Positions 9,556 to 27,577 of a stretch of DNA of 64,000 nucleotides are shown here, piece by piece. Origin of the DNA: Roseivivax lentus. GTDB taxonomy: Bacteria > Pseudomonadota > Alphaproteobacteria > Rhodobacterales > Rhodobacteraceae. The stretch's first letter is position 1; each line of letters opens with the position of its first letter. Both the position numbers and the translations under genes were made by a program. The stretch lies in NCBI RefSeq assembly GCF_900156805.1, contig NZ_FTOQ01000011.1, positions 1 to 64,000 on the forward strand, written 5' to 3'. The notes beneath the pieces were generated by a model that had not been told where the DNA came from, did not search any database, and was given only the letters and a program-made list of their open reading frames with translations.

Positions 9556-9640
9556 TCCGAATCCGGCAATGATCGAACCACCACCCGCGGGATGCGGGCG
9601 GTCGGCGAAGGAACAGGCACCGGACAGGGCGGGACAGGAC

Positions 9641-10606: not shown

Positions 10607-12036
10607 CCATGGACGTGCTGCGCATCTATGTCGGCGGCACCTGGATCGCGCCGTCGGGCGACGCGACGATGCCGATCACCGACCCCGCGACCGAAGAGCG
10701 GATCGGCACGGTCGCGCTGGCATCCCCGGCGGATGTGGATCACGCGGTCAACGCCGCCACCGAGGCGTTCCGCAGCTTCGGCACATGGTCCAAGGCCGAA
10801 CGCCTCGCCCTTCTCCGGCGTATCCGGGCGCTGACCGCCGAACGCATCAAGGACCTCGCCCAGGCCATGTCCCGCGAGATGGGTGCCCCCATCACCATGG
10901 CGCGCGAGATGCAGGCCGAAGCGGGCGTCGGGCATGCCGACGGGTTCATCGAGGCGCTCGAGGCGCAGGAGGAAAGCTGGACCCTCTCCAACGGCGACAC
11001 GCTGCTGCGCGAGCCGATCGGGCCCGCGGGCCTCATCACGCCGTGGAACTGGCCGATCAACCAGATCGCGCTGAAGGTCCTGCCCGCGCTCGCGACCGGA
11101 TGCCCGGCGATCCTGAAACCGTCCGAATACACGCCGCTCTCCGCCGCGATCTATGCCGAAATCCTGCACGAGGCGGGCGTGCCCCCCGGGGCCTTCGCGC
11201 TCATCAACGGCACTGGGCCGGTGGTCGGCGACGCGCTGGCGCGGCATCCCGGCCTCGCGATGGTGTCCTTCACCGGCTCAACCCGTGCGGGCATCTCGGT
11301 GTCGAAATCCGCCGCCGACAGCGTGAAGCGCGTCACGCTGGAGCTCGGCGGCAAGTCCCCGAACCTCGTTTTCGCCGATTGCGGCCCCGATCTCGAGACG
11401 CGGGTGCGCGCCTCGGTCGCTGAATGCTTCCTCAATAGCGGGCAGTCCTGCGACGCGCCCACGCGCCTCGTGGTGGAGCGCGCCTGTTATGACGACGTGG
11501 TCGAGATCGCCCGCATGGCCGCGGAGGAGACCCGGATCGGCGATCCCCGCGCCGAGGGGGACCATATCGGCCCGCTCTTCGACCGCCTGCAATGGGACAG
11601 GGTGCAGGAGCGGATCGCGCAAGGCATCGCCGAGGGCGCACGCCTCGTCGCGGGCGGTCCGGGCCGGCCCGAGGGGATCAACCGCGGATGGTATGCCCGG
11701 CCCACAATCTTCGCCGATGTCCGCAACGACATGACCATCGCGCGTGAGGAGATCTTCGGCCCGGTCCTGTCGATCCTTGCCGCCTGCGACGAAGAAGACG
11801 CCATCGCCATCGCCAACGACACGCTCTACGGCCTTGCCGCCTACATCCAGACCGGCGATCCGGAGCGTGCCCGGCGCGTCGCCGCGCGGCTGCGCGCAGG
11901 CGCGGTGCACGTGAATGGCGGCGGCCTCGGCTGCGGAACGCCGTTCGGCGGCTACAAGGCGTCCGGCAATGGCCGCGAAGGCGGAACGATGGGCCTCGAG
12001 GATTACCAGGAAGTGAAGAGCCTGCATTTCGGGTGA
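10603..12036 (+). CDS. Aldehyde dehydrogenase family protein
   Basis: The product has 477 residues, a normal length for NAD(P)+-dependent aldehyde dehydrogenases. Visible motifs are the cofactor segment TPWNWPINQIALKVLPAL, VSFTGSTRAG, the general-base Glu in VTLELGGKSPNLVF, the catalytic Cys in NSGQSCDAPTRLVV, and EEIFGPVLSI. It is the last gene of the operon that begins at 7682 and overlaps the preceding gene by four bases. Together the four enzymes (hydroxylation, carbon-carbon cleavage, alcohol oxidation, aldehyde oxidation) look like a degradation route for a hydroxylatable amine or acid, but the substrate is not determined. Confidence 0.92.
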   Translation: MTMDVLRIYVGGTWIAPSGDATMPITDPATEERIGTVALASPADVDHAVNAATEAFRSFGTWSKAERLALLRRIRALTAERIKDLAQAMSREMGAPITMAREMQAEAGVGHADGFIEALEAQEESWTLSNGDTLLREPIGPAGLITPWNWPINQIALKVLPALATGCPAILKPSEYTPLSAAIYAEILHEAGVPPGAFALINGTGPVVGDALARHPGLAMVSFTGSTRAGISVSKSAADSVKRVTLELGGKSPNLVFADCGPDLETRVRASVAECFLNSGQSCDAPTRLVVERACYDDVVEIARMAAEETRIGDPRAEGDHIGPLFDRLQWDRVQERIAQGIAEGARLVAGGPGRPEGINRGWYARPTIFADVRNDMTIAREEIFGPVLSILAACDEEDAIAIANDTLYGLAAYIQTGDPERARRVAARLRAGAVHVNGGGLGCGTPFGGYKASGNGREGGTMGLEDYQEVKSLHFG

Positions 12037-12148: not shown

Positions 12149-12568
12149 CTACCGGGCGAGACGCAGGCCGAGGAATTCTTCATCCGTCGCCGGCCGCTCG
12201 CCCGTTTCGGTCTGAATCCAGACGGTCAGGCGCAGCTTGCCGTCCGAAACCATCGCCCGGTCGATGACGACGAGTTGCGACAGGACACGCGGCGCATTGG
12301 CGCCAAGACCGAATTGCGCGACGCTGCCGGCGATCTCGCCGGTCTCTGAACGCAGGACAAGCGCGGCGGACGGCATCAGGCGGCCCGTCAGGACTTCGAC
12401 GATCACGTCGCCCTCCGAAGCCGGTGCCGCCAATTCGACGCTGGGTGCGGACACCGAATGCTCCGGCATCGTCCCCTCCTTCCCAACCGGGGGCGTGACA
12501 TCGGCCCCGGCCGCTGCGGCCGGGACTGACATCAGGACCGAAACGGCCAAGGGGAGAAAGCCTGTCAT
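12149..12568 (-). CDS. Small exported protein coupled to the tyrosinase
   Basis: The product has 139 residues, with a signal peptide at about 1-20 (MTGFLPLAVSVLMSVPAAAAG). The mature part is predicted beta-rich and acidic, with no motif I recognise. Its start overlaps the tyrosinase stop (ATGA), so the two are co-translated and both exported. Known streptomycete tyrosinases need a small helper (MelC1) for copper loading and export; a helper role here is only an analogy, as no MelC1 histidine cluster is seen. Confidence 0.7.
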   Translation of the reverse strand: MTGFLPLAVSVLMSVPAAAAGADVTPPVGKEGTMPEHSVSAPSVELAAPASEGDVIVEVLTGRLMPSAALVLRSETGEIAGSVAQFGLGANAPRVLSQLVVIDRAMVSDGKLRLTVWIQTETGERPATDEEFLGLRLAR

Positions 12569-14250
12569 CCCGTAACGATGGTTTCGACGGACACCGATTT
12601 CAAGATCGCGCCGCGCCCCATGCCGGCGTCCGCTCCGTCCGTGTCCTCGCGACCGACGGTGACGACGGCCACGTCAAACGACGCGCCCGGGTCGAGGATG
12701 CCCTGCGCGTGCAAGCGGTCGAGCGCCTCGGTGATGTCGATGCTGAACCCGAGGTCTCCGCCGTGGTGGACGCCCATCCCGAAGAACTCGGCCGAGCCCG
12801 CGAACTCGGCGCTGTCACGCGACGTGTCCGGCGCCTGGCCCTCGGGCACCACGAAGACGTCAAAGCTAACACCGCGCAGAACCGTCGGAGGCATGATCAC
12901 GATATGAGCCACCTGGCGGTTTTCGGGCGCGGGCACGCGCTCGGCAAGGGCGCCGGGAACCGCCAGCGTCAGGGTCCCGAATTGCTGGTTGCCGAACGGC
13001 GCGTTGCCGCGCGCCGTGGATTGCGCGGCGAAGACCGTGCTTGTGCCGGTATCCGGCGCCACGAGTTCCGAGCCCGTGCCGTCGGCATAGCTGTAGCCCC
13101 AGGTCGGGTCGATATCCATGGACTGGCCCGCCGTCGAGGGCGCGGGGTTCTTGGCCTCGTCGATGTAGAACAGGAAGGCTTCGCGATTGAAAAGCTCGGC
13201 CTGCAGCCCCTCGGCGGGATAGGGGCTGCGGTTGTTCGCCTGCTGACGGCGCGTCCAGATATCCCACAGCCGGTCGACGTTGCAGTGATGCATGAAGAAG
13301 ATCGGGTCGATGGGGGACAGAAGGCTGGGCATCCAGCCCATGTTGGTGTCAGTCGGAAACCCGAGATTGTTGTGCACGAGGTTGTGCGGCTGCCCCTCGA
13401 CCAGGGAGCCGAAGGACGAACTGCCGTCATGGGTCAGCGTCTGGGCGGTATTCAGCCCGCCCACCGTGGCCGGAGCGCCGCCGACCATCTGGCGGGTGGT
13501 GAGGAAATTCGGCGTCGTCAGACCGGCCTTGTAGCTTCCGTATTGCACCGCGCTGAGGCCCGTGCCGGTGAGGTCCGGGGCCTCGGCGGTCTTGGACCGC
13601 GCCCGCGTGCGATCATCGGTGAAGTTGGGCTTCACGCCCAGGTAGAGGGTCGGATCGCCGGTCCAGAAACTGTCGAAATCCGGGTATCCGCGTGTATCGA
13701 GCTGCAGGCGCTGCGCATCGTCAAACCCGTTCCACACCGCCTCGAACGCGTCGTGAAACGTGTTCTCGAAGGTGGACCAGTCGGGGTACTTGGCGCTGCG
13801 CGGATCGAGCGGATTGTCCGGATCGGCGTCCGACATCAGCATCGTGTCGGGCACGCGCTGGTCCTTGGTCCAGTCCCAGAACGGCAGCGCGAAGGTGTCG
13901 TCCTCGCCGTAGATCCGGATGATCCGCTCGAAATACCCGGTGTAGGGACGATGCCACACGAAAAACCACCAGTTCATGTGCGGGCAGTCCATCAGGTGGA
14001 TCAACGCATAGCGATGCCAGTTATGCGGATCCGTCGCATCGAGCGACAGCATCGTATCGACCGCGCGCCGGTAGGTCATCATATGCTCCAGCCCCTCGGG
14101 AGAGGTCATGGAATGCCGCACCACCCCCTGATGGCTGGCAGCGCGCGCGATATGTGGGGCGGCAAGCACGGCCGCGCCCAGCGTCGCGCCCTGCAAGAGC
14201 GTGCGTCGGGAAAGTGTGGCTGTGCCATGAGCTGGTCGGTTTGCGGTCAT
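12565..14250 (-). CDS. Tat-exported tyrosinase-family copper oxidase
   Basis: The product has 561 residues from the ATG at 14250. The N-terminus carries a twin-arginine signal (LSRRTLLQGATLGAAV, then APHIARA). The CuA site is read in HRYALIH, CPHMNWWFFVWHRPY and YFERI. The CuB site is read in GQPHNLVHNNLG and SPIDPIFFMHHCNVDRLW. A C-terminal beta domain of about 200 residues resembles the lid domains of larger polyphenol oxidases. Tyrosinases hydroxylate monophenols and oxidise catechols to quinones; oxidation of other phenols (for example N-acetyl-hexosamine-like or dopamine-type substrates in related families) is possible. Export by Tat fits folded cofactor-loaded proteins. A farther upstream in-frame start would add a poor N-terminus before the Tat signal, so it was rejected. 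Confidence 0.9.
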   Translation of the reverse strand: MTANRPAHGTATLSRRTLLQGATLGAAVLAAPHIARAASHQGVVRHSMTSPEGLEHMMTYRRAVDTMLSLDATDPHNWHRYALIHLMDCPHMNWWFFVWHRPYTGYFERIIRIYGEDDTFALPFWDWTKDQRVPDTMLMSDADPDNPLDPRSAKYPDWSTFENTFHDAFEAVWNGFDDAQRLQLDTRGYPDFDSFWTGDPTLYLGVKPNFTDDRTRARSKTAEAPDLTGTGLSAVQYGSYKAGLTTPNFLTTRQMVGGAPATVGGLNTAQTLTHDGSSSFGSLVEGQPHNLVHNNLGFPTDTNMGWMPSLLSPIDPIFFMHHCNVDRLWDIWTRRQQANNRSPYPAEGLQAELFNREAFLFYIDEAKNPAPSTAGQSMDIDPTWGYSYADGTGSELVAPDTGTSTVFAAQSTARGNAPFGNQQFGTLTLAVPGALAERVPAPENRQVAHIVIMPPTVLRGVSFDVFVVPEGQAPDTSRDSAEFAGSAEFFGMGVHHGGDLGFSIDITEALDRLHAQGILDPGASFDVAVVTVGREDTDGADAGMGRGAILKSVSVETIVTG

Positions 14251-14359
14251 GATGCGGGCTCCCAATTGGATGTTGAAAACGATTCGCCAAATAATTGTTT
14301 GCAACCATAGCACTTCGCGCCTTGTTTGAGCGCATGCGACGATTGCCGGAAGCCACGCC

Positions 14360-14851: not shown

Positions 14852-15340
14852 CTATATGTCGTTTCGCGGAATGCGAAGTTCCTGACCCGGGAAGATCACG
14901 TCCGGATCCGTGATGATGTGCTGGTTGGCCTGGAATATCGGCTGGAAATCGTTGTTTCCGTATTCCTGCTGGGCGATCCCGGTCAGCGTGTCTCCGGGCT
15001 GCACGGTATAGGGCCTCCAACCGCCGTAGCCTGTCAGGATCTTCGGCCCATAGAGGATCGGAACAACGACCGACGGGCCGTTTTCGTTGCCGGTATCGTC
15101 GGCAAGCGTGAGAAACAGCCGGTTGAGCTTGAACGCGTTCTGGTTCGGGATCTCGATCGACCCTTGGAACTGCCGTAACCCGAGCGATCCGACGCTGGTG
15201 AAGGAACTGTACTCGTCGTGGCCCTCGGACACGCGGATGCTGAGCGTGCCCTCAAATGCTGTCGCGTTTCCTGCTATCAGGATCGTTGAACCAACGAGGT
15301 CAAAGGGTTGGGGTTGCTGAATATCAAGTGTCGGCGGCAT
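14852..15340 (-). CDS. LysM protein with a Gmad2 immunoglobulin-like domain
   Basis: The product has 162 residues. Residues 1-95 look like a Gmad2 Ig-like domain (LDIQQPQPFDLVGSTILIAG, then TLSIRVSEG). Residues 108-160 are a LysM domain (YTVQPGDTLTGIAQQEYG, ending DVIFPGQELRIP). LysM binds peptidoglycan or chitin-like glycans. No signal peptide is visible, so it may be exported by another route or act inside the cell. The ATG at 15340 was chosen because it has an AGGA ribosome site and begins directly before the first strand. The gene is alone between two IS6 relics on the same strand, so it may have been carried in. Confidence 0.85.
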   Translation of the reverse strand: MPPTLDIQQPQPFDLVGSTILIAGNATAFEGTLSIRVSEGHDEYSSFTSVGSLGLRQFQGSIEIPNQNAFKLNRLFLTLADDTGNENGPSVVVPILYGPKILTGYGGWRPYTVQPGDTLTGIAQQEYGNNDFQPIFQANQHIITDPDVIFPGQELRIPRNDI

Positions 15341-15417
15341 TCTGAAAAATCCTTTCGATGAAATCGTGGGCGCGGGTCCCGATGAGTCATGGAGTCTACA
15401 CCAAAAGGCGCTGCCAG

Positions 15418-15955
15418 ACGAATTCGAACCGGTCTCTCCACGGACAGGATGGCTGTCCCCTATGCCGCGCAGAGACCGCGCCACTCGGTACGCGCGGCGG
15501 CGCGGTTGGCCTGGAAGAGGCGTCTGCTGGAGAGGGCAAGTTCCTGATCGAAGCGGTTCGAGACGCAGGCGAACGTCTGAAGACTGACACGCGTAAATCG
15601 AGGGATTGTCCGCCCTCGCGGCCTGAAAGGGAGGTGTTGGTTTCTTCCGCAGACTGTTAAGCTTGCGGCTGCGGCTCATAAGTCGCTGCACTGCTTGCGT
15701 CGGCTCGTGGCCAGCTCAGGTCCACACTTGCGCCACCAGAACCATACCGTCTCGTGGCTGTTCTCTACGCTTTTCTCCTGCAACAGGTCTTTGACATTTC
15801 GGAGCGACAAAGAGAACCCGCCGTATAATACCACGGCACGTCGGATGATCTTGGGCAACGTCTCGAAATACTTGAGCGGCGGACGTTTTGTCATGCAACG
15901 ATGCTAGCCAACCCGTCGCCCCGCCCAAAAAGCGAGTTCCTCTGACAAGACCTTC
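15418..15955 (-). mobile_element. IS6-family element relic 2, internally deleted
   Basis: On the minus strand an N-terminal transposase fragment runs 15894-15676, with LKYFETLPKIIRRAVVLYGG and NSHETVWFWWRKCGPELA, as in IS6-family transposases. The catalytic centre is missing. The remainder (15660-15418) resembles the C-terminal end shared with relics 3 and 4, including the block GAATTCGAACCGGTCTC. The segment CCTCTGACAAGACC at about 15941-15955 matches the N-terminal end of the other relics. Both ends appear present with the middle deleted. Confidence 0.7.
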
Positions 15956-16729: not shown

Positions 16730-16936
16730 TCAGATCTCGCGATTGATGGCTTGTTCGACCAAAATATCGGGACCAAGCTTCGATTGCAGCGCTTCTAGAT
16801 TCATCCCTTCGGCCTCCACCTGCATGATCCTGCGCGTCGCACCAACGACGCGGACCCCGCGCGTTTCGGCGACCCGTTCCTGCCATGTGTCGTCTCTCAC
16901 GCCCCTTCGCAGCGCGATCACAAATCGCTCCGACAT
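16730..16936 (-). CDS. Small protein resembling an I9-type protease inhibitor/propeptide
   Basis: The product has 68 residues from the ATG at 16936. The pattern ERFVIALRRGVRD at the start, a helix (TWQERVAETRGVRVVG), and a closing strand/helix (RRIMQVEAEGMNLEALQSKL) fits a small ferredoxin-like domain of the inhibitor I9 kind. Such domains are the propeptides of subtilisins or stand-alone subtilisin inhibitors. It lies 55 bases downstream of, and on the same strand as, a subtilisin-like protease that lacks a clear standard propeptide. A chaperone or inhibitor of that protease is a sensible inference. The short length makes the family call tentative. Confidence 0.6.
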   Translation of the reverse strand: MSERFVIALRRGVRDDTWQERVAETRGVRVVGATRRIMQVEAEGMNLEALQSKLGPDILVEQAINREI

Positions 16937-16991
16937 GCCCAGTCGCCTTGTATGACGCGCGCAGGGAAATCCGCCCGCAAGGGAGCGTCCC

Positions 16992-18533
16992 TCAATGCAT
17001 TGCACGGCACAAGCCGAAACCCTGGAACGGGCGCGCCATGCCGAGATTGATCGCTGTCTGCGCTAGAAGCGTCGATGCATAGGCGGCACGCTCACGCTCC
17101 CGCGGGAGCTGCTTGTACCGCGCATCCTCGCCCAGCAAGCTGGCAAGCGCTGCGGTGACCAGGGGCGTTGCCATCGAGGTTCCGCTCATGGCGGCATAGG
17201 GTGCTTCGAGCCCTTCGCGCGCAGGCACGGTCGAGATTATCCCGACACCGGGCCCGGTCACGGTGACCTCCTTGCCGACATTCGAGAAGCTGCCGAGAAA
17301 GACCCCGTTCGGCCCTTCCTTGAGGCTGGAATCGGCGCCTGTCGGAACATTCATCGAGGCGAGCGTGCCCGGCACGAGCGCGCTGCGGATTCCGATGGCC
17401 GACACCGCAACCGCCTCGGGGTACGCCGCCGGATAGTTGACCGGCCCGCCGTAATCGTTGCCCGCCGCGCAGATGCACAATGTCCCGGCGTTGACCATGT
17501 CGGCGACGGCATCGCGTTCGATTTGCGACGGCTGAGACGCGCCGAGGCTGAGGTTGATCAGGTCGGCGTTGTCGTCAAGCGACAACCTTTCGATCGCCGC
17601 GGCGATATCACCCTGGTTGCCGCCGCCGTTTGCCGTAAAGACACGCGCGCACAGGATTTCAGCCGCTTGCGCGGCACCGGCGTAATCCGTTGACGCGTCG
17701 GGCGGTGTGGCACCGATCAGGCCGCACACATGCGTGCCGTGATCGCGCGCGTCTGACCCGGCGCTGCTACCGGACTTGAAACTGCCGTCGATGAAGGCTC
17801 CAACGACCTTGACCGCGGACAAGTACGGATGCGGCCCGCACCCTGTGTCTACGACACCCACGCGAATGCCGTCGCCGACGCGGCTGTCGGTCGTGCGGCC
17901 CATGATCTCATGCCACCATCCAAGCGGTCCGGTCATCGGCAAAGCTGTCAACTCGATCGGCGTGGCGGAGATCGGTGCGGGTATCACCGTACTGAACCAG
18001 CTTGCTACAGGATCGACCAGCATCGAGATCGGTGTGTAATCGGGGTCGAAATTGAAGCTCGCAGCGCCAGTCTCGTCCGTCGTGGCCTTAGCCGATGAAT
18101 GGCTGCCGCGGGTGGCGTCCTGCAGGAACAATGTGAGGTGCGCACCCGGCACAGGATTGCCAGCGCCCCGCAGCGTGACGGTCAGTGTCGTTCCCGCTCC
18201 CGGCGTCAGGGAGAATGGCACATTGCGCAACAGGCTTTCGATTTCCGCCGGATGGGACCTCATCGGGCGACGCAGCAACTCGGGTTCGATGATGACATCG
18301 GCCGCCGCGGACGCCGCCTTCGCCTCGATTTCATGGGGATCGGCCTCAAAGACCGAGATGAAGCGCCGATCCTTGGCGGACTTGCCTCGCCCGCTTCCGC
18401 CGGACTTGCTGACGGTATCGACATTCTTTTCCAGATGCGTGCCGAAGAACTCCTGCGCGGCGTTCAGTGATGCCGTGCGTTCCGAGCCTTCGGTCATTCC
18501 GGAAAGCCGGTGAGAAATTACGTAACGAGCCAT
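16992..18533 (-). CDS. Subtilisin-like (S8) serine protease of the lanthipeptide-type operon
   Basis: The product has 513 residues. The catalytic triad is complete: D229 (VGVVDTGCG), H265 (RDHGTHVCGL) and S453 (SGTSMATP), with oxyanion N359 (CAAGND). Residues 1-90 are an unusual N-terminal region with a Gly/Ser/Lys linker (SKSGGSGRGKSAK). Residues 105-185 form an Ig/transthyretin-like insert (GTTLTVTLRGAGNPVPGAHL). There is no signal peptide, so it probably acts in the cytoplasm or is exported without one. In several lanthipeptide systems a subtilisin (LanP) removes the leader; here the substrate may be the linkers of the multi-core protein encoded upstream. The start has an AGGAGA site eight bases before ATG. 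Confidence 0.88.
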   Translation of the reverse strand: MARYVISHRLSGMTEGSERTASLNAAQEFFGTHLEKNVDTVSKSGGSGRGKSAKDRRFISVFEADPHEIEAKAASAAADVIIEPELLRRPMRSHPAEIESLLRNVPFSLTPGAGTTLTVTLRGAGNPVPGAHLTLFLQDATRGSHSSAKATTDETGAASFNFDPDYTPISMLVDPVASWFSTVIPAPISATPIELTALPMTGPLGWWHEIMGRTTDSRVGDGIRVGVVDTGCGPHPYLSAVKVVGAFIDGSFKSGSSAGSDARDHGTHVCGLIGATPPDASTDYAGAAQAAEILCARVFTANGGGNQGDIAAAIERLSLDDNADLINLSLGASQPSQIERDAVADMVNAGTLCICAAGNDYGGPVNYPAAYPEAVAVSAIGIRSALVPGTLASMNVPTGADSSLKEGPNGVFLGSFSNVGKEVTVTGPGVGIISTVPAREGLEAPYAAMSGTSMATPLVTAALASLLGEDARYKQLPRERERAAYASTLLAQTAINLGMARPFQGFGLCRAMH

Positions 18534-18555: not shown

Positions 18556-21102
18556 TTATTCTTTTTTTCGCGTCTGTGCCTTTCGCGTGGCTTTCGGTTT
18601 TTGCTCCGTGGCGGGCTTCGACCGGGGCGGACGGAGGATCAACGCCGAGGGTGTTGCAGCCGGGTCGGCGAGGCGCAGCAGGAAATGGCCGATCCCGGAC
18701 AGCCCCATCATCAGTCCCGGTGCTTCCCCGGTTTGCTGGACGCCGCATGGCAGAGGAATATCGGGATTAATGTAGCTGTCGATCACCCAGCGCCCGACCT
18801 GGTGCGCAACAAGCGCCACATCGTCCCGTTTCAAGATCTCTCCGGCGAGCAGGACCGTTTCCGCAGCACCAACGGTGCCGTGACACAGACAGAAGTCGCG
18901 GGCGTTGGACGGGATCGGCCCGGTAAGATAGGCCGACATGTGTTGCAGCCCGGCGTTGACCTCCTGCAGCAGCTGCGGATCGTCGGGAAGCAGCTCCAGC
19001 AGGCGGAGACGGGATGCCGCGATGCCGACCGATCCGTTGCACCAAGTGGGCGCATAGACAGGGACGTGGTTCTCGCGCGTCTGACCTTGCGTCGTGTCGA
19101 TGCGGAAATCTGGCCACGCCTGCTGGGCCGGGTCGAACCACGCGCGTTCATAGGCAAGCGCAGCTTCCCCCGCCGCTCTCAGGCTGGTGTCACCGTCGAT
19201 CCCGGCGGCCTCTATCAATGCCGCGGCGGGGCCTGCAGCGCCATGGCCAAGACCCAGAAGGTTATTGGCGCTCGGGATCGCGGATTGCCAGGACAGGCCG
19301 TGCACGTCGCGCACGCCGTCAGCAGCGAGGGTCCGGGCTATGGCCAGCGCGGTCTCGGCGAGGTCCGGCCGATCGTAGCGACGGGCCACATCTATCAGCG
19401 CAACGATCACTCCAGCGCGCCCGCCGAGATAGTCGAAGTCGAGCGGTTCGAAATCGGCGTCGGTGACGCGGCCGATCAGCGAGATGCCGTCCTCCACCAG
19501 CTCGGGCATGTCCAGCCGCTCACCCCCATGGATCATCGCAAGGCCCATGCCGGTCGTTCCGGTATAAAGTCCGCGCCCCTCGAAGTTCTCGGCGCTTGCT
19601 GCCACGGACCGGATCGCACCGCGTGCGGCGTCTGCAATGATCGCGTCACCGCCGCGCGCGGCAAGTTCGGCGAGAAAGAAGGCGACCCCTGCGGTGCCAT
19701 CGTAGAGCAACGGACCCATGCCACGCTGCGCCGGTCGAAATCCGCCATCCACGAAGCTCATCGCCCAACCGGTCCACCCTGCCCTGTCGCCGTCCCAAAT
19801 CGCGTCGCGTGCAAGCTGACGGCCAATCACACCCGCTGCCTCGATATAGGCGTCGGCCGCCGATTTAGGGTCGGTGGCGGGCGGGATCGAACCGGGTCTG
19901 GCAACGAGGCGGATTGTGCCGGATGTCGCCGTAAAAGCCGGCCTGACCTCGGCATCCGCGCTTCGGCCCCTGCCAAGATGTGGCACGGCGATATCAAGAC
20001 CGGCCATCGCGAAACGCCGCGCGACGGCGGTCAGCCGGGCCTCGGGGTCGGTTAGACCCTTCATCCAGGCATCGAGAACACCGGCGGCCATCAGACGGCA
20101 ACGGGACTGGCCGAAGCTCTGCCCATCGGCCGGGTCGTCGGCAAGCCCGATCCCGGGCGCGAGTTCACGCGTGAAAAGCGGGGTCGCCGCATCGGCGCCA
20201 AGCAAGTCGGCGGCGGCTCCGATCACCAGATGCTGCACGAGCGCAGCGTAGCGCCGTGGGCTGTAGAGAACCGTGCAGTCGGTACGGTCATACCCGGCAG
20301 GGTCGGCCAGCGTCTTGATCCGGAACGGAATTCCGTATCCATCGAGCGATGCGATGATGGCTGCGACAAGAGTCGGCGCCGCATCGGCGGTTGGGTTGAA
20401 ATAGATCCGAAGCAGCGAGGCGCTGTCGTAATCGCTGAGCGGGCGCCCGCCGTTCCAGTAAAGGAACCCCGGCTGCCAGGCGGAAGAAAACAGGTCGGTT
20501 ATGATGTCCACGGTCGCGCCAACGGTCATCTGGGCGCCGTCACGTAGGGTGAACCGCCCGGGCGCGACTTGGATGTAACATTCGCCCTTGCGAACATGCA
20601 CCGCGCCATTGGCGTCGGCCTGGAAAATCGTCCAGCCCTGATTCCATCCCTGCTGTGGCGTCAGGCTTGCCCCGAACCGGCCTATGAACTCCGTGTTGGG
20701 CTGGGTGACATGGGTGGGGCGTTGCGCCGTGCCGCCAAACACGCGAGCATATCCTTCGTTGTAATAGACCCCCCACAGCGCATCGGCCAGCGGATGAGCA
20801 CTTGCTGTGGGGTCGGGCGGAGAAGTGCGGCCGACCCACGGCTTCGGCGCGGCCCAGTCGGGCCCGCCGCGAGGCGTGGCGCCGGTGCGGCCTCCGTTCG
20901 GCTGTGCCGCTGTCGCGGCATCGGCCTCGGTCACGGCAGCCGGGACGGTCATGTCGGCGAAGCGCGCCTGCATCGGGGTGACGATCTCCGTCGCCTCGAA
21001 AAGCCGCGTTAGGCGCGCGCGCATATCGGGGTCGATGGCTGCCGTGCGGGCCGCGAGGGATGCAGCGTCAGGGGCACGCGGGAGTGGGTCGAGGTCAGCC
21101 AT
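18556..21102 (-). CDS. HopA1-like/LanC-like fusion, putative lanthipeptide lyase-cyclase
   Basis: The product has 848 residues from the ATG at 21102 (site AGGTGA; a GTG at 21114 is possible). Residues about 105-345 match the HopA1 family seen in class V lanthipeptide clusters (LADALWGVYYNEGY, LLRIYFNPTADAAP, YDRTDCTVLYSPRRYAALVQ). The C-terminal ~400 residues are a LanC-type alpha/alpha toroid with seven Gly-rich turns, including DGTAGVAFFL, YTGTTGMGLAM, LGGRAGVIVAL, GLGHGAAGPAAAL and MMGLSGIGHFLL. The zinc ligands are conserved: C688 (TWCNGSVG) and C740-H741 (CLCHGTVG). LanC domains add Cys thiols to dehydrated Ser/Thr; HopA1-like proteins are proposed to eliminate phosphate. The tail (RSKPATEQKPKATRKAQTRK) is Lys-rich. 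Fusion of the two domains is unusual. Confidence 0.85.
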   Translation of the reverse strand: MADLDPLPRAPDAASLAARTAAIDPDMRARLTRLFEATEIVTPMQARFADMTVPAAVTEADAATAAQPNGGRTGATPRGGPDWAAPKPWVGRTSPPDPTASAHPLADALWGVYYNEGYARVFGGTAQRPTHVTQPNTEFIGRFGASLTPQQGWNQGWTIFQADANGAVHVRKGECYIQVAPGRFTLRDGAQMTVGATVDIITDLFSSAWQPGFLYWNGGRPLSDYDSASLLRIYFNPTADAAPTLVAAIIASLDGYGIPFRIKTLADPAGYDRTDCTVLYSPRRYAALVQHLVIGAAADLLGADAATPLFTRELAPGIGLADDPADGQSFGQSRCRLMAAGVLDAWMKGLTDPEARLTAVARRFAMAGLDIAVPHLGRGRSADAEVRPAFTATSGTIRLVARPGSIPPATDPKSAADAYIEAAGVIGRQLARDAIWDGDRAGWTGWAMSFVDGGFRPAQRGMGPLLYDGTAGVAFFLAELAARGGDAIIADAARGAIRSVAASAENFEGRGLYTGTTGMGLAMIHGGERLDMPELVEDGISLIGRVTDADFEPLDFDYLGGRAGVIVALIDVARRYDRPDLAETALAIARTLAADGVRDVHGLSWQSAIPSANNLLGLGHGAAGPAAALIEAAGIDGDTSLRAAGEAALAYERAWFDPAQQAWPDFRIDTTQGQTRENHVPVYAPTWCNGSVGIAASRLRLLELLPDDPQLLQEVNAGLQHMSAYLTGPIPSNARDFCLCHGTVGAAETVLLAGEILKRDDVALVAHQVGRWVIDSYINPDIPLPCGVQQTGEAPGLMMGLSGIGHFLLRLADPAATPSALILRPPRSKPATEQKPKATRKAQTRKKE

Positions 21103-21162
21103 ATGTGTTGTCACCTGTTTCTTGTGTCCGATCAGAGGTCAGAGCGGTCATCTGAGAGATGG

Positions 21163-22296
21163 TCATGCGGCGATCTCTGGCAGAAGCGTGTTGCGCCCGG
21201 CGCGGTCGGGATCGGCGAAGATCGCGGCGGCCGCCTGCATCAGACCGGTCACATGCGGCGCCTCGGCGGACGCGGCGGCCGCCATCTCGAACGCCGAGAG
21301 GACCAGGCGCACCGCGGCGAACCGCATCACGCGCTGGCGGGCGAGATCCGCGTGGGGGCCGTCCAGCACACCAAAGGCACTGGCGTATCCGTGCCAGAAC
21401 GCGGCGAGCGCCCTGCGCGCGCTATCGGTCTCCTGGGTAATCAGGTCGGGCTCTGCGGCAAACCAGGCAAGGCCCGGCGTCTTGGCGGCTCCGGTGGCGG
21501 TCAGGGACAGACGCTGCAGATATCCCGCGACGATGCAGCCGACGTCCCAGCCGGCGTCGCCGATATCGCAAAGTTCCCAATCCACCAGCTTTACGGTAAA
21601 ATCGGCTTCGGCCCCTTCACCTGTATTGGCCACGATGACGATATTTTCCCATTTTAGATCGCCGTGATTGAAGGTGTTCAGCCGCCATTCCGCGGCGACG
21701 GTATCAAGAAGCTGGATCAGCAAGGGATTGGCCCTGATTTGGGCGACGAGGCCCGTTTGACCCGCGCTTGCCGCGGGCATGATCGTCTCGGCGTTGCGCG
21801 GAAGGTGCAGCACCCAGGGTTGGCGGTGCGGAAAATGCGCCGTCGAGTCGGTATCGGCAAGGATCGCGGCGGTTGCGGAATGCAGCGTCACCAGATGCTG
21901 CGCCAGTTGCTGCGCGACCTGGGGGTGGTCCGGACCGGCTTGCGCCAGAAATTCATTCAGGGACCGCCCCGTCGCCGCCAATTCCAGCGTCAGCGTACCT
22001 CGGCTCCGGTCGTAATCGCGCATTGAAAAACACATGCCCGAAAGTGGAGCAAAGGCCGGGCGGTTCGCCACGAGGGCGTGAAAGATCGCTTCGCGGTTCA
22101 GGGTTTCGTGCACCTCGGCCATGGCCATGGGCGCCTGCTTGACGAAAAGCCCGTCGCCGTCCTTGAGATAGACTTTGAAATTCCGGTTGCGCCGTCCGGC
22201 CTCGACCACTTGGTAATCGCCCGAAAGGATCAGCCCCGGCTCAACTGTGGCGCGGTCCAGCAGGTAAGTGGCGAGCGTGCCGCTCGTGAGGTACAT
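21163..22296 (-). CDS. Aminoglycoside-phosphotransferase-fold kinase, putative lanthipeptide kinase (LanK type)
   Basis: The product has 377 residues. An APH-type kinase fold is clear: a possible ATP-contacting Lys in LFVKQAP (K53), the catalytic loop NHGDLKWENIV (D213, N218), and the metal-binding VDWELCDIGDAGWDVG (D239). In class V lanthipeptide systems a stand-alone APH-like kinase phosphorylates Ser/Thr of the precursor before elimination. The gene sits between the Cys/Thr-rich precursor-like gene (70 bases upstream) and the HopA1-LanC fusion (60 bases downstream), which argues for that role over antibiotic resistance or small-molecule phosphorylation. The protein substrate remains to be shown. 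Confidence 0.85.
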   Translation of the reverse strand: MYLTSGTLATYLLDRATVEPGLILSGDYQVVEAGRRNRNFKVYLKDGDGLFVKQAPMAMAEVHETLNREAIFHALVANRPAFAPLSGMCFSMRDYDRSRGTLTLELAATGRSLNEFLAQAGPDHPQVAQQLAQHLVTLHSATAAILADTDSTAHFPHRQPWVLHLPRNAETIMPAASAGQTGLVAQIRANPLLIQLLDTVAAEWRLNTFNHGDLKWENIVIVANTGEGAEADFTVKLVDWELCDIGDAGWDVGCIVAGYLQRLSLTATGAAKTPGLAWFAAEPDLITQETDSARRALAAFWHGYASAFGVLDGPHADLARQRVMRFAAVRLVLSAFEMAAAASAEAPHVTGLMQAAAAIFADPDRAGRNTLLPEIAA

Positions 22297-22366: not shown

Positions 22367-23815
22367 TCAGCAGACGACCGGGATCCCGGTGCAGCCAATC
22401 ACGTTCGAGGCGGCACAGACGACCGGGTTGATCGTCCCGGTGACGGCTTGCGGTGCCGCCGCGCCTCCACCCGGTGCGGGATTCGGGCAGGTCAAGGTGA
22501 CCGGCGGGACCCCGCAGGTGTGGAACCACGTCTGGATCGGGCCGCCCTGTGGTGCCGCCACAGCGCCACCATTGCAGCCGATCTGGGTGCAGACCGTTGC
22601 CATCGTGGTGCCCGCGCAGACCGCCGGCTGAGTACAGAGGGTCGCGGCTGTATGCATACCGACCGCTTGCGGAGCCGCCGCCGCCATTCCTTGTCCGCAG
22701 GCGAATGTCGGTTGCACCGTGGTCGTCATGGTCGGGTGTTGCGGGCAGAACGCCGGATGGGTCATCACGGTCGTATTGATGGTGAGAGTCTGCGGCGCAG
22801 CCACAGCACCATTATTGCAGATCGCGGCGACGCCCGTGCACTGGGCAAGCTGCGAAATAGTGGCAACCGGACAGACGATGGGTAGGGTCACTCCACAAAT
22901 GCCCAGCACTGTAATGCCTTGTGGCGCCGCTCCGCCCGGAGCAGGAGCGCAGCATTGCGTCTGTACACCGCTGCAATGGGTGACGGGTTGCGTAAACATG
23001 GTCTGGCACACCTGCACCGTTTGTCCACCGCATTTTCCCATCGCGGTCAGCGTCGGATGCAGGGCTGCATTTGCACCGCCGACTGCCTGAGGCGCTGCCG
23101 CAGCACCACCGTTGCAGATGACCGGAACGCCAGTGCATCCGATTGCCTGCGATGCGACGGTGACGCCGCAGACCGCTGGAATAAAGGTCTTGTCGCACAG
23201 GCCGAGGGCGGTGATCCCTTGCGGCGCCCCGGCCTGCGGACAGCACTGGGTCTGAACGCCGCTGCACGGAGGATGCGTGAGCGGCGACTGACAGCCGCCC
23301 TGAATGCCGCTGCAGCCGCCCGGGGCAGGCGCCGTCGGCGCAGGGCAAACCTGTACGGTGGGTGCGCACATCGGCAGTGTCGTGATGGTCGGATGTACCG
23401 TAGCCTGCGCGCATCCGACTGCCTGAGGCGCTGCCGCGGCACCGCCGCAGATGACGGGGACATTGGTCACATTGTGATCGCAGATTGGCGTGATGCCGGT
23501 TTGACCGCAAATCGGTGTAATCGTGATGCCCTGCGGCGCTGCCGCCGCGCCGCCGCAGATGACCGGGATGCTGGTCACTTTGGGATCGCAGACTGGCGTG
23601 ATGCCCGTTTGACCGCAAATCGGTGTAATTGTGATTCCCTGCGGCGCTGCCGCTGCACCGCCACAAATGACGGGAATGCTGGTCACATTGGGATCGCAGA
23701 CTGGCGTGATGCCCGTTTGACCGCAAATCGGTGTAATCGTGATTCCCTGCGGCACTGCTGCGCCGCAAATTTGGGGAATATAAGTCATCATGATAGTTGC
23801 AGTGCCGTAAGACAT
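22367..23815 (-). CDS. Modular Cys/Thr-rich protein, candidate multi-core lanthipeptide precursor
   Basis: The product has 482 residues. It contains about 42 Cys (my count), many Thr, Pro and Ile, and very few charged residues. It divides into about 12 modules, most closed by a spacer such as GGAAAAPQ, GGAVAAPQ or GGAAPQ. Three consecutive 36-residue modules are nearly identical (GITITPICGQTGITPVC, then V/N-containing and VTSIPVICGG segments). Later modules diverge but keep Cys and Thr spacing (VQVCPAP, SGVQTQCC, IGCTGIPVVC). No recognisable leader is present: only about 17 residues (MSYGTATIMMTYIPQIC) precede the first spacer. The ATG at 23815 has a strong AGGAGGG site; longer starts lack one. 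It heads an operon with kinase, lyase/cyclase and protease genes, so Thr/Cys thioether formation is the leading hypothesis. A structural or metal-binding Cys-rich protein is the alternative. Confidence 0.8.
   Translation of the reverse strand: MSYGTATIMMTYIPQICGAAVPQGITITPICGQTGITPVCDPNVTSIPVICGGAAAAPQGITITPICGQTGITPVCDPKVTSIPVICGGAAAAPQGITITPICGQTGITPICDHNVTNVPVICGGAAAAPQAVGCAQATVHPTITTLPMCAPTVQVCPAPTAPAPGGCSGIQGGCQSPLTHPPCSGVQTQCCPQAGAPQGITALGLCDKTFIPAVCGVTVASQAIGCTGVPVICNGGAAAAPQAVGGANAALHPTLTAMGKCGGQTVQVCQTMFTQPVTHCSGVQTQCCAPAPGGAAPQGITVLGICGVTLPIVCPVATISQLAQCTGVAAICNNGAVAAPQTLTINTTVMTHPAFCPQHPTMTTTVQPTFACGQGMAAAAPQAVGMHTAATLCTQPAVCAGTTMATVCTQIGCNGGAVAAPQGGPIQTWFHTCGVPPVTLTCPNPAPGGGAAAPQAVTGTINPVVCAASNVIGCTGIPVVC
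23423..23746 (-). repeat. Three tandem 108-bp coding repeats in the precursor gene
   Basis: The units 23746-23639, 23638-23531 and 23530-23423 each encode one 36-residue module. They differ at only a few codons (DPN, DPK and DHN; TSI versus TNV), implying recent unit duplication. Confidence 0.9.
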
Positions 23816-23820
23816 GACTA

Positions 23821-23836
23821 CCCTCCTGATATCAGG
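23821..23836 (-). promoter_or_regulatory. Strong Shine-Dalgarno overlapped by a 12-bp perfect palindrome
   Basis: On the minus strand AGGAGGG lies five bases before the precursor ATG at 23815. It overlaps the palindrome CCTGATATCAGG (23825-23836). The dyad could be an operator or an RNA hairpin that hides the ribosome site. No matching -10/-35 pair was clear upstream. Confidence 0.55.
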
Positions 23837-24930: not shown

Positions 24931-26031
24931 ATGCGTAACCCGTTCGACCGCTTCAAAGGCAAAGACCCTGAAAGCACCGCTGGCGACCCCGACGGCGCGG
25001 TTGCCATGCCGCGCGATATTCCGATCGTCTGGCTGCTGGGCCGAACCGGTGCGGGAAAAAGCTCGCTCATTCGGGTGCTGACGGGCCTCGGCGCGATCGA
25101 GGTCGGCAACGGCTACGCCCCGTGTACGCGCACGTCTCAGAGCTTCGACTTCCCCGCAGAACAGCCGCTGGTGCGGTTTCTCGACACCCGGGGCCTCGGC
25201 GAAGCGGGCTATGATCCCGGCGAGGATCTGGCCGCTTGCGAAGGGCACAGCCACGCGGTGATGATCGTGGCCCGTCTGGACGATCCGGTCCAGGGCGAGG
25301 TTGCAGAGGCGTTGCAGACCGTGGTGCAGCGCCGGCCCGGAATGGAGATCCTTCTGGTCCATACGGGCGCCGACCTGCTGGCCGACCGGTCGATGCAGGA
25401 GCGCGCGCGCGCCGCTAACCAGAAGCGCTTCGAGGGTGCGGCGGGCCGTGCGATCCCCGACGTGATCATCAGCTTGCCACAAGGGGCCAACCCGCAGGAG
25501 GACGAGCTTGCCGCCTTGAAGGATGCGCTGGTCGAGACCCTGCCGAACGCCGGACTGGCCTTGCGCCAAGAGGCGGTGACGGATGCGGAATCCCGCGCCT
25601 TCAGCGAGGTCCGTCAGACCGTTCTTCTCTATTCCGGGATGGCGGGCGGGTCCGATGCGCTGCCCATTCTCGGCCTCTTCTCGTCGACGGGGCTGCAATT
25701 CACCATGCTCAAGAAGCTCGGCGATCATTACGATGTGCCCGTGACGCTGGCGCTGGCCCGGAATTTCCTGTCCCTGCTGGGCGTGGGGGTCGGAGGGCGC
25801 CTTCTGGGCAGCGTGGCCCTGCGGCAAGGCGGCAAGCTGATCCCTGGATACGGACAGACCGCGGGCGCGGTGGCCGCCGGTGCCTTCACCTTCGTTGCGA
25901 CCTATGCGCTCGGGCGGACGGCATGCCGCTATCTCTATACGCTCTCGATCGGTGGCACGCCGTCGCGCGAGGACATTCAGGCGACCTTTCGCGACGCCCT
26001 GAAGCGGGCCGGGCAGCAGCATGATCATTGA
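24931..26031 (+). CDS. GTPase with membrane-associated C-terminal domain (DUF697-like)
   Basis: The product has 366 residues. The G-domain shows P-loop GRTGAGKSS (37-45), G3 FLDTRGLGE (84-91) and a G4-like VHTGADLL. The C-terminal ~140 residues are hydrophobic helices (LPILGLFSSTGLQF, LGVGVGGRLLGSVAL, and later hydrophobic stretches), as in YcjF/DUF697-type GTPases that sit on membranes. The start at 24931 is preceded by a weak purine-rich site. It overlaps the next GTPase gene by 11 bases, so the two are likely partners, possibly in stress or membrane remodelling. The function is not known. Confidence 0.82.
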   Translation: MRNPFDRFKGKDPESTAGDPDGAVAMPRDIPIVWLLGRTGAGKSSLIRVLTGLGAIEVGNGYAPCTRTSQSFDFPAEQPLVRFLDTRGLGEAGYDPGEDLAACEGHSHAVMIVARLDDPVQGEVAEALQTVVQRRPGMEILLVHTGADLLADRSMQERARAANQKRFEGAAGRAIPDVIISLPQGANPQEDELAALKDALVETLPNAGLALRQEAVTDAESRAFSEVRQTVLLYSGMAGGSDALPILGLFSSTGLQFTMLKKLGDHYDVPVTLALARNFLSLLGVGVGGRLLGSVALRQGGKLIPGYGQTAGAVAAGAFTFVATYALGRTACRYLYTLSIGGTPSREDIQATFRDALKRAGQQHDH

Positions 26032-27577
26032 TCGCGCACGGGGATTCCTGCTCAGATGGCGCATCCTCGTGCGGGCGGGCGCGGTCGCCCTTCCCGTCAT
26101 CGTGTCCTGCCTTCTGGGCCTCCTGTGGCTGCGCGAGCACGGGTACCTTCTGGAATTCACGATCACCTGTCTGGTCGTGGGCCTCATGGCTTACCTCGCG
26201 CTGAAACTGCCCCTGTGGCTCGGCAAGGCGGAACCGTCCGAGCCGCTTGATCTGGCAGAGGGCTACCATGTGGAGGCCGATCCCGATTGGTCGCCCTCGG
26301 AACAGAAGGCCTTCGGCGCTGCCCGCAAGCTGATCGACACGCGTCTGCGCCAGCCCTTGCCGGTGGACGAAATCCAGAACTTCGCCCTTGAGGTGATCCG
26401 CCAGGTGGCCGAGGCTTCCGGAGATCAGGGCAAACGCGAGCTGGACTTCACGATCCCCGAAGCGCTGCTTCTGGTCGAACGCGTCTCCTCGAGGCTGCGC
26501 GCGGATCTCAGGGCGCATATCTCGATCTCGGACCGGATTTCGGTCGGAACGCTCGTGTGGCTCTGGCAGAACCAGGACCGGGCAAAGCGGCTCTACGGGC
26601 TCGGGCACGGGGCCTACCGCGTCTACCGGCTGACCGCCGGGCTGCCCGTCGCGGTGATGCGCGAGACGCTGGATCTGGTCACCAGCGGCAATTCCAAGAT
26701 GCTGACCGGCGAGTTGCAGGTCATCGGCCAGCGCATCCTCTTCGAGGAGATCGCGCGCGCCGCGACGGAGCTTTACTCCGGACGCTTGCGCATGTCCGAT
26801 GCGGAGCTTCTCGAAAGCATCCTGCAGGAGGCCGATATCGACCGTCAGCGTCTGGCCGCGCCGGACGCACCGCTCAGGATCGCCGTCGCCGGTCAGGTCA
26901 GCGCGGGCAAGTCCAGCCTGGTGAATGCCTTGCTCGGCTATGACTTCGCGGAGACCGATATGCCGCCGACCACCGATCGCGACACGATGCATGAAGGCGA
27001 AATCGCCGGGCTACCCTGCAACCTGATCGACCTTCCGGGCCTCGATGGCAGTGCTGCGGCCACGGAAGCCACCCTGCGCGAGGCGGATCGTTGCGACATC
27101 CTGCTTTGGGTGACGGCGGCAAACCGGCCGGGACGCGAACTCGACCGCGCGACAATCGCGAAGATGAAGGCGCAATTCGCCAAGGCACCGAGCCGCCGTG
27201 TGCCGCCCTTCATCGGGGTCGCCACGTTCTGCGACAAGCTCGCCGGTCCCGACTGGCCCTATCCGGAACACAACATCCCGCAAGAGGTCCAGACCCGCAT
27301 CGGCGCCGCCGTGACCGCCATCGCACAAGAGACCGGGATGGATGCCCCCGTGCCTGTCGCCCTTGGCGATCACCCGTGGAACGTTTCTGCCGTGCGGCAG
27401 CAGATCTCGGCTCGGCTGCCCGAGGCAATAGGGGTCCAGCGCAATCGCACCCGGCTGATGCGCGGAGAGAAATCCTTCGGACGCGAGGCGCTCGACACGG
27501 TGCAGGGCGTCACGAAGAGCCTCAGATCGCTGTCCAGACATGCGGCTGCGCGTTACCGGCGTTCCGACAAGGAATGA
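26021..27577 (+). CDS. Membrane-anchored Era/YeeP-like GTPase
   Basis: The product has 518 residues. Two N-terminal membrane segments (about 17-35 and 45-64) are followed by a helical region of about 200 residues. A G-domain then starts near residue 290 with P-loop GQVSAGKSSLVNALLG, G2 threonines in PPTTDRD, G3 LIDLPGLDG and a G4-like TFCDKLAG. GTPases of this build relate to dynamin-like or Era-like proteins acting at membranes. It follows a second GTPase with an 11-base overlap. Paired GTPases with hydrophobic domains suggest a two-component membrane machine, but no partner in the window explains its target. Confidence 0.82.
   Translation: MIIDRARGFLLRWRILVRAGAVALPVIVSCLLGLLWLREHGYLLEFTITCLVVGLMAYLALKLPLWLGKAEPSEPLDLAEGYHVEADPDWSPSEQKAFGAARKLIDTRLRQPLPVDEIQNFALEVIRQVAEASGDQGKRELDFTIPEALLLVERVSSRLRADLRAHISISDRISVGTLVWLWQNQDRAKRLYGLGHGAYRVYRLTAGLPVAVMRETLDLVTSGNSKMLTGELQVIGQRILFEEIARAATELYSGRLRMSDAELLESILQEADIDRQRLAAPDAPLRIAVAGQVSAGKSSLVNALLGYDFAETDMPPTTDRDTMHEGEIAGLPCNLIDLPGLDGSAAATEATLREADRCDILLWVTAANRPGRELDRATIAKMKAQFAKAPSRRVPPFIGVATFCDKLAGPDWPYPEHNIPQEVQTRIGAAVTAIAQETGMDAPVPVALGDHPWNVSAVRQQISARLPEAIGVQRNRTRLMRGEKSFGREALDTVQGVTKSLRSLSRHAAARYRRSDKE

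What the first reader, a model, noticed from the sequence alone, without database searches (positions are those of the whole stretch)
22367..23815. A 482-residue modular Cys/Thr protein as a multi-core, leader-poor lanthipeptide precursor
Seen: about 12 modules, most ending in AAPQ-type spacers, about 42 Cys, many Thr, almost no charge, no typical leader. Context: kinase, HopA1-LanC fusion and S8 protease directly downstream on the same strand. Known lanthipeptide precursors are mostly 40-110 residues with one core. Inference: the modules are repeated cores, cut at the spacers into several ringed peptides, or a single very large thioether-bridged protein.
Basis: partly seen in the sequence, partly recalled or inferred. 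Interest (0 to 1): 0.95.

Follow-up and report, generated by a model that had tools for sequence, protein, structure and literature searches.

The report
Giant leaderless multi-module lanthipeptide-type precursor
A bacterium appears to encode a 482-residue, almost uncharged protein made of a dozen cysteine- and threonine-rich modules beside the enzymes that turn such residues into chemical rings, and relatives of the cluster in other bacteria have similar repeat proteins, which suggests a little-known branch of ring-peptide biosynthesis that works on whole repeat proteins without the usual guide segment.

Summary
The 482-aa ORF (22367-23815, -) has a strong ribosome-binding site, 12 segments separated by 11 APQ-type spacers, 42 Cys, 65 Thr, no Glu or Arg, and no leader. 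Downstream lie an intact LxmK-like kinase, a HopA1 (phospho-Ser/Thr lyase)-LanC (cyclase) fusion and an S8 protease.

Comparison supports the reading that this is the substrate. I compared 19 kinase+HopA1+LanC-type loci. Of the 17 with the upstream region held, 11 (seven lineages) have a multi-repeat Ser/Thr-rich precursor immediately before the kinase; six have, by eye, a conventional leader plus one core. Repeat units are under purifying selection in the two lineages tested best. Key kinase and lyase residues are invariant. The LanC zinc ligands are intact in 16 of 17; the one exception is the locus whose precursor (435 aa, 109 Thr) has no Cys.

Best explanation: a class V-like dehydratase/cyclase acting on a leaderless polyprotein, giving many (methyl)lanthionine modules, probably then cut by S8 at the APQ spacers. 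Dehydration and cyclisation are inferred; cleavage is not shown, and four of the seven multi-repeat lineages show no S8 gene nearby. A giant uncut product stays open. New variant of a known kind (class V with LanC). No chemistry has been done.

The parts
22367..23815 (-). 482-aa leaderless multi-module precursor; 42 Cys, 65 Thr, 11 APQ-type spacers
23423..23746 (-). three near-identical 36-aa modules (aa 24-131), GITITPICGQTGITPVCDPNVTSIPVICGGAAAAPQ type
23821..23827 (-). Shine-Dalgarno-like AGGAGGG, 5 nt before the ATG at 23815
   Evidence: sequence
21163..22296 (-). LxmK/LanK-like (APH fold) Ser/Thr kinase; HGDLKWEN and DWE motifs and the conserved Lys intact
18556..21114 (-). 852-aa HopA1-LanC fusion: predicted phospho-Ser/Thr lyase plus lanthionine cyclase
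19975..20481 (-). HopA1 (PF17914) domain; Lys and the Tyr 17 residues further on match CaoY K219/Y236 by spacing
18640..19710 (-). LanC-like domain (aa 469-825); His and zinc ligands Cys, Cys, His present
16992..18533 (-). S8 subtilase, no signal peptide seen by eye, catalytic triad intact; candidate maturation protease
16730..17005 (-). small ORF overlapping the S8 gene by 14 nt; no family hit; a small ORF also follows S8 in the Deinococcus locus; membership uncertain

Best explanation
The 482-aa protein is a leaderless polyprotein substrate of a class V-like lanthipeptide system. The kinase phosphorylates Thr/Ser in the modules, the HopA1 domain eliminates phosphate to give dehydrobutyrine/dehydroalanine, and the zinc LanC domain adds the module Cys thiols to make (methyl)lanthionine rings. 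Recognition would lie in short repeated elements (the APQ/PQ-type spacers and module starts) rather than in one N-terminal leader. The co-encoded S8 protease most likely then cuts between modules and releases a set of different ringed peptides. Shown by sequence: the gene order, the modular precursor, intact catalytic residues, the recurring partnership, the domain fusions, and the Cys/zinc-site correspondence. Inferred: all chemistry, spacer-based recognition and cleavage, export, and biological role (competition or signalling).
For: Operon-like order precursor-kinase-HopA1/LanC-S8 with gaps of 70, 48 and 22 nt. Kinase+HopA1 was shown to be the class V dehydratase for cacaoidin (CaoK/CaoY, PMC9486802; passages and section 6 seen). 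Of 17 loci with the upstream region held, 11 have a multi-repeat Ser/Thr-rich ORF directly before the kinase, in seven lineages: window; g449 (5 genomes); g345; Acidobacteria MAG; f208; f13; Aliiroseovarius. Repeat units are conserved as protein: g449 octads differ by 273:14, 276:14, 355:36, 48:0 and 371:17 synonymous:non-synonymous codon differences, L048 modules by 88:23 and 61:10, the window's 36-aa copies by 20:10. Rosetta-stone fusions: kinase-HopA1 fused in genus g449; HopA1-LanC fused in the window, Deinococcus, Rhizobium, Pseudonocardia, L018 and L019. Kinase Lys, Asp, Asn and DWE and HopA1 Arg, Lys, Arg, Tyr are invariant in 19 of 19; LanC His in 17 of 17. Zinc ligands are intact in 16 of 17 LanC; the exception (g345, L040: C to V, C to A, H to S) is the only locus whose precursor has 0 Cys (435 aa). 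S8 triad intact in 8 of 8 aligned.
Against: No chemistry. The Cys-free/zinc-less pairing is one evolutionary event. No S8 gene was found near four of the seven multi-repeat lineages (L012, L017, L046, L048), though only roughly 6-9 kb each side was held. The APQ spacers do not track S8 strictly: L017 and L048 have some PQ elements without S8, PQ in L017 is no more than its shuffled mean (3 against 4.4), f208 (L046) has one PQ, and [AG]PQ in L048 is not clearly significant (reached in 117 of 5000 shuffles). g449 precursors have only 3-4 Cys for 37-61 Ser/Thr, so rings would be minor there. No transporter was seen among the ten window proteins scanned with Pfam; I did not search the genome for an exporter. 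The kinase misses the NCBIfam LxmK cut-off. The multi-repeat relatives are distant (enzymes about 27-42% identical to the window's), and among 389 relatives of the window's genome only that genome itself has HopA1. Single-core, leader-bearing loci share the same enzymes, and five of the six HopA1-LanC fusions are of that kind, so the enzymes alone do not imply a multi-core substrate.
Confidence: 0.62

Rival explanations
1. The protein is modified along its length but not cut into units: the product is one very large thioether-cross-linked, dehydro-rich protein (a material, matrix or surface protein); S8 only trims ends or is a quality-control protease.
For: Uncharged low-complexity composition (1.5% charged here, 0% in five g449 precursors, 0.9% in g345); no S8 found near four of seven multi-repeat lineages; strong conservation of short octads without Cys looks polymer-like.
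Against: Distinct, diverged module types in the window look like a polyprotein; the L048/Aliiroseovarius modules are compact 12-residue cores in variable linkers; an intact S8 sits in the operon-like run in the window and g449.
Confidence: 0.25
2. The repeat protein is an unmodified or disulfide-bonded protein, and the kinase/HopA1-LanC enzymes act on something else.
For: Cys-rich repeat proteins exist in other contexts (general knowledge); no direct chemistry.
Against: No signal peptide seen at the N-terminus (by eye); the repeat ORF is the gene immediately before the kinase in seven lineages; single-core relatives have a leader-core precursor at the same position; loss of the LanC zinc site in the one Cys-free locus.
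Confidence: 0.1
3. The 482-aa frame is not a gene: a high-GC repeat that happens to be open.
For: Other long ORFs overlap it, among them one of 318 aa and one of 306 aa, and codon-position GC bias is weak.
Against: Strong ribosome-binding site; synonymous bias in repeats, modest here (20:10) and very strong in g449 relatives; same position and similar features in other lineages.
Confidence: 0.03

Closest known systems
Class V lanthipeptides, cacaoidin CaoK/CaoY type (PMC9486802: passages and section 6 seen)
   Same: APH-type kinase plus HopA1-type lyase next to the precursor; catalytic Lys and Tyr spacing of the lyase. That paper already reports wide co-occurrence of the two enzyme types in diverse genome contexts
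   Different: CaoA has a leader and one core; here the precursor is leaderless and 482 aa with many modules, and LanC is fused to HopA1
Class Vb lanthipeptides with a LanC cyclase (SmoA/SmoC; known here only from the review PMC12328550, section 7 read; the original paper was not held)
   Same: Kinase, lyase and LanC together
   Different: The review says class V was found only in actinobacteria (another paper, PMC7794033, passages seen, mentions homologs in Actinobacteria and Firmicutes); here in proteobacteria, Acidobacteria, Deinococcus and others, with fusions, S8 protease and multi-module substrates
Multi-core RiPPs such as microviridins (PMC5934393: start of abstract in a search listing only) and cyanobactins (recalled)
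   Same: Several cores in one polypeptide; cyanobactins use S8 proteases between cores (recalled)
   Different: Different chemistry; their precursors have leaders (recalled for cyanobactins); the S8 here matches the PatA/PatG model only weakly (27.1 bits against a cut-off of 421)

Membership tests
Class V lanthipeptide system | APH-fold LanK kinase with intact catalytic residues | tested here: met
   Pfam APH 38.6 bits; motifs intact
Class V lanthipeptide system | NCBIfam LxmK equivalog cut-off (315 bits) | tested here: not met
   66.9 bits: related, not an equivalog
Class V lanthipeptide system | HopA1-type LanY lyase with catalytic Lys/Tyr | tested here: met
   PF17914 107.5 bits; Lys and the Tyr invariant in 19 of 19; the mapping to CaoY is by spacing, not by alignment to CaoY
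Class V lanthipeptide system | Precursor with N-terminal leader and a single core | tested here: not met
   No leader by inspection; 12 segments; leader-domain profile A2 has no hit in the own genome at E <= 1
Class V lanthipeptide system | (Methyl)lanthionine in the product | not testable with these tools
   needs mass spectrometry or NMR
LanC zinc cyclase | Cys, Cys-His zinc ligands and conserved His | tested here: met
   present in the window; 16 of 17 aligned
Class II LanM synthetase | Curated LanM cut-off (304 bits) and N-terminal dehydratase | tested here: not met
   231.5 bits over residues 415-818 only; HopA1 lies where a LanM would have its dehydratase

The most novel reading that the evidence does not exclude
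There is a branch of class V-like RiPP biosynthesis in which whole leaderless repeat proteins of 160-480 residues are modified along their length, with recognition carried by the repeats themselves. Ring content is tuned by Cys content: thioether-dense in the window and f208, sparse in g449, and in g345 none at all, giving a giant Dhb/Dha-rich 'dehydroprotein' made with a LanC that has lost its zinc site.
Probability: 0.5. Interest if true: 0.93.

Novelty: new variant of a known kind. Interest (0 to 1): 0.86.

Why it matters
RiPP enzymes are generally guided by a leader peptide. A lineage that processes leaderless proteins of up to 482 residues with tens of Cys/Thr sites would be a natural test of leader-free recognition, and would give one-gene access to many ringed peptides or to a new protein-based material. 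The Cys-free, zinc-less relative is a ready-made control that separates dehydration from cyclisation. Genome-mining filters for small ORFs could miss such precursors (inference).

Tried and rejected
Precursor searched by tblastn in plasmids: no match (the low-complexity filter is on). In the own genome only itself, E up to 10. Fusion in viral contigs: 3 stretches matched a pattern, none confirmed. Genome-contig scan with the HopA1 alignment: 5 of 219 stretches confirmed; the patterns were narrow, so coverage of relatives is incomplete. Kinase and LanC queries in plasmids brought no further HopA1-kinase locus. In one search, 7 genomes of the family besides the own one matched; five matched mainly in the LanC part and were not examined further; G139 and G078 (HopA1 part) were fetched (L023, L024) and gave no match to the cluster's proteins (a weak HopA1-region match in L009, from G078, lies in a long ORF that looks unrelated by eye). 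HopA1 loci without LanC were used as contrast: L057-L061 (no LanC match), L015 and L016 (LanC not annotated); none has a charge-poor ORF before the kinase, and no precursor was identified in L057-L061. L041 and L047 had no match to the queries. One search used a LanC query in a wrong frame; redone. Precursor matches were made with the low-complexity filter off and are not used as evidence. Leader-domain model (pLDDT 73) had no PDB match at E <= 0.001; the leader profile gave weak hits in two g449 genomes (E 0.45 and 0.49), taken as chance. The Pfam CDGSH hit to the precursor (17.2 bits, cut-off 29.5) is spurious. Tree supports printed after midpoint rerooting, and copied into my note as 98 for the multi-repeat group, are misplaced; the supports given here are read from the raw Newick string. 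A test of a shared leader/spacer recognition motif was considered too weak to run. Aliiroseovarius precursors from three plasmids carry the same protein accession, so gave no variation. Loci left out of the 19: L020 and the other Aliiroseovarius plasmids (same species as L012), a second Rhizobium and a second Pseudonocardia plasmid.

Full report
What is there. The ORF at 22367-23815 (-) encodes 482 aa starting MSYGTATIMMTYIPQICGAAVPQGITITPICG. It has 42 Cys, 65 Thr, 10 Ser and 7 charged residues (4 Asp, 3 Lys, no Glu, no Arg). Eleven APQ-type spacers divide it into 12 segments; the spacer is far above chance (11 [AGV]PQ; 0 of 5000 shuffles). Segments fall into a few related kinds: 2-4; 5 and 7; 6, 8 and 12, with 6 also related to 2-4; segments 9, 10 and 11 match none of segments 2-12 above z 5, and segment 1 was not compared. 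A clear Shine-Dalgarno site precedes the ATG. There is no leader by inspection, and a profile of the leader domain seen in relatives finds nothing in the own genome at E <= 1.

Neighbours. On the same strand follow a kinase (APH fold; LxmK-like at 66.9 bits, below the 315-bit cut-off), an 852-aa HopA1-LanC fusion and an S8 protease, with gaps of 70, 48 and 22 nt. The catalytic residues looked at are intact in all. No transporter is among the ten window proteins scanned. CaoK and CaoY, the same two enzyme types, were shown to phosphorylate and eliminate Ser/Thr of cacaoidin's precursor (PMC9486802; passages and section 6 seen).

Relatives. Seven further kinase-HopA1 loci without a LanC match or annotation (L015, L016, L057-L061) were kept as contrast. 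The system is rare: HopA1 in 2 of 385 genomes drawn from the class, 4 of 398 of the phylum, 6 of 296 of the order of G955 (five of the six show no LanC match), 1 of 389 relatives, the own genome, 1 of 5 of one family, but 9 of 82 in the order of G475 (seven in genus g449). Counts include the window's or the centre's genome where drawn, and the samples overlap.

Precursors. Upstream sequence is held for 17 of the 19 (two g449 contigs, L037 and L038, end before it). Eleven are multi-repeat: the window; five g449 genomes with (AQPQTISF)n or (AQPGTISF)n proteins of 164-252 aa, from the starts I chose, without a charged residue; g345 (L040), 435 aa, 109 Thr, no Cys, APQ spacers; an Acidobacteria MAG (L017), 456 aa, N-terminal leader domain then Cys/Thr repeats with AAPQAAAQA spacers; f208 (L046), 459 aa, 47 Cys, with the leader domain in a separate gene before it (the ORF spans a 100-N gap, so its length is uncertain); f13 (L048), 390 aa with 13 matches to one 12-residue module pattern; Aliiroseovarius, 80 aa with three modules of similar type. 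Six have, read by eye, a conventional leader with one core (Deinococcus, Rhizobium, Pseudonocardia, Latescibacterota, Blastocatellia, and the Centralia MAG, which has two small candidate precursors). Synonymous changes far outnumber non-synonymous ones among repeat units in g449 and L048 (for example 273:14 and 88:23), so these repeats are translated and their protein sequence is selected; in the window the ratio is 20:10. The other lineages were not tested this way.

A natural control. Aligning 17 LanC domains (Pseudonocardia gave no envelope, L039 is cut off), the zinc ligands Cys, Cys, His are present in 16. The exception is g345 (C to V, C to A, H to S), exactly the locus whose precursor has no Cys, while the kinase and lyase residues compared are intact. 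It is one event, but it ties the cyclase to the cysteines of this kind of precursor. Fusions of kinase to HopA1 (g449) and of HopA1 to LanC (window and five others) also tie the three enzymes together. Against a simple rule, the five other HopA1-LanC fusions all sit with single-core precursors.

Phylogeny. In a tree of concatenated domains (17 taxa, 1074 columns, no outgroup) the split between single-core and multi-repeat loci has support 79; the group window+g449+g345+Acidobacteria+f208 has 98; window with g449 has 96 (read from the Newick string). This agrees with, but does not prove, one origin of multi-repeat precursors.

Mechanism and limits. Phosphorylation, elimination and Cys addition follow from the enzyme families; none is measured. 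Cleavage at APQ by S8 is the likeliest use of the protease in the window and g449/g345 lineages, but S8 was not found near four other multi-repeat lineages within the sequence held, so a giant uncut product remains possible. Recognition by repeated short elements instead of a leader is an inference; the APQ-type element also appears once in the Deinococcus leader (NGQAPQGVMIAGY).

Known or new. A review (PMC12328550; section 7 and passages seen) describes class V as found only in actinobacteria, with subgroup Vb using a LanC cyclase; PMC7794033 (passages) mentions homologs in Actinobacteria and Firmicutes, and PMC9486802 reports kinase-HopA1 co-occurrence in diverse genome contexts, in a supplementary figure I did not see. 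My searches for class V with HopA1, LanC fusion, multi-core, leaderless or Proteobacteria (open-licence PMC only) listed no report of HopA1-LanC fusions with giant leaderless multi-module precursors; most hits were judged from the listing alone, and subscription papers were not searched. I therefore call it a new variant of a known kind.

Noticed in passing
L040:5964-7271 and 9589-11118: Cys-free, Thr-rich 435-aa repeat precursor paired with a LanC that has lost all three zinc ligands; kinase and lyase residues intact.
   Followed up: partly
L036:8454-12411, L035:9238-13189, L022:13113-17107: In g449 the S8 gene is followed at once by a peptide-type solute-binding protein (SBP_bac_5 by Pfam in L036; similar by eye in the others) and a large membrane-type protein, a GAF/histidine kinase by Pfam in L022: possible sensing of the product.
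   Followed up: partly
L022:8097-10274: Kinase and HopA1 lyase fused in one 725-aa ORF; the same layout in the seven g449 loci.
   Followed up: partly
L046:13176-13766 (-): Leader domain encoded as a separate 196-aa gene before a leaderless Cys/Thr repeat ORF: a possible leader acting in trans.
   Followed up: partly
L011:7024-7593: Deinococcus sp. QL22 leader-core precursor at a place with no gene in the PLSDB table (which is incomplete), before kinase, fusion, S8 and a small ORF in the same order as the window.
   Followed up: yes
L013:13224-16418: A lantibiotic dehydratase gene lies close to the kinase/HopA1-LanC locus on a Rhizobium plasmid.
   Followed up: no
L057-L061: Kinase+HopA1 loci without a LanC match in family f181 of another alphaproteobacterial order, with an S8 match about 3.5-4 kb from the kinase; precursor not identified.
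   Followed up: partly
window 12565-14313 and 14852-15691 (-): A tyrosinase and a LysM/Gmad2 protein lie downstream of the cluster; neither has a good match in the relatives' loci compared (one weak LysM-protein match in L018, E 0.002 with the low-complexity filter off).
   Followed up: partly
window 24931-27577 (+): A MMR_HSR1 GTPase gene at 24931-26031 and a second ORF at 26021-27577, which looks GTPase-like by eye, lie on the other side of the precursor, divergently transcribed.
   Followed up: no
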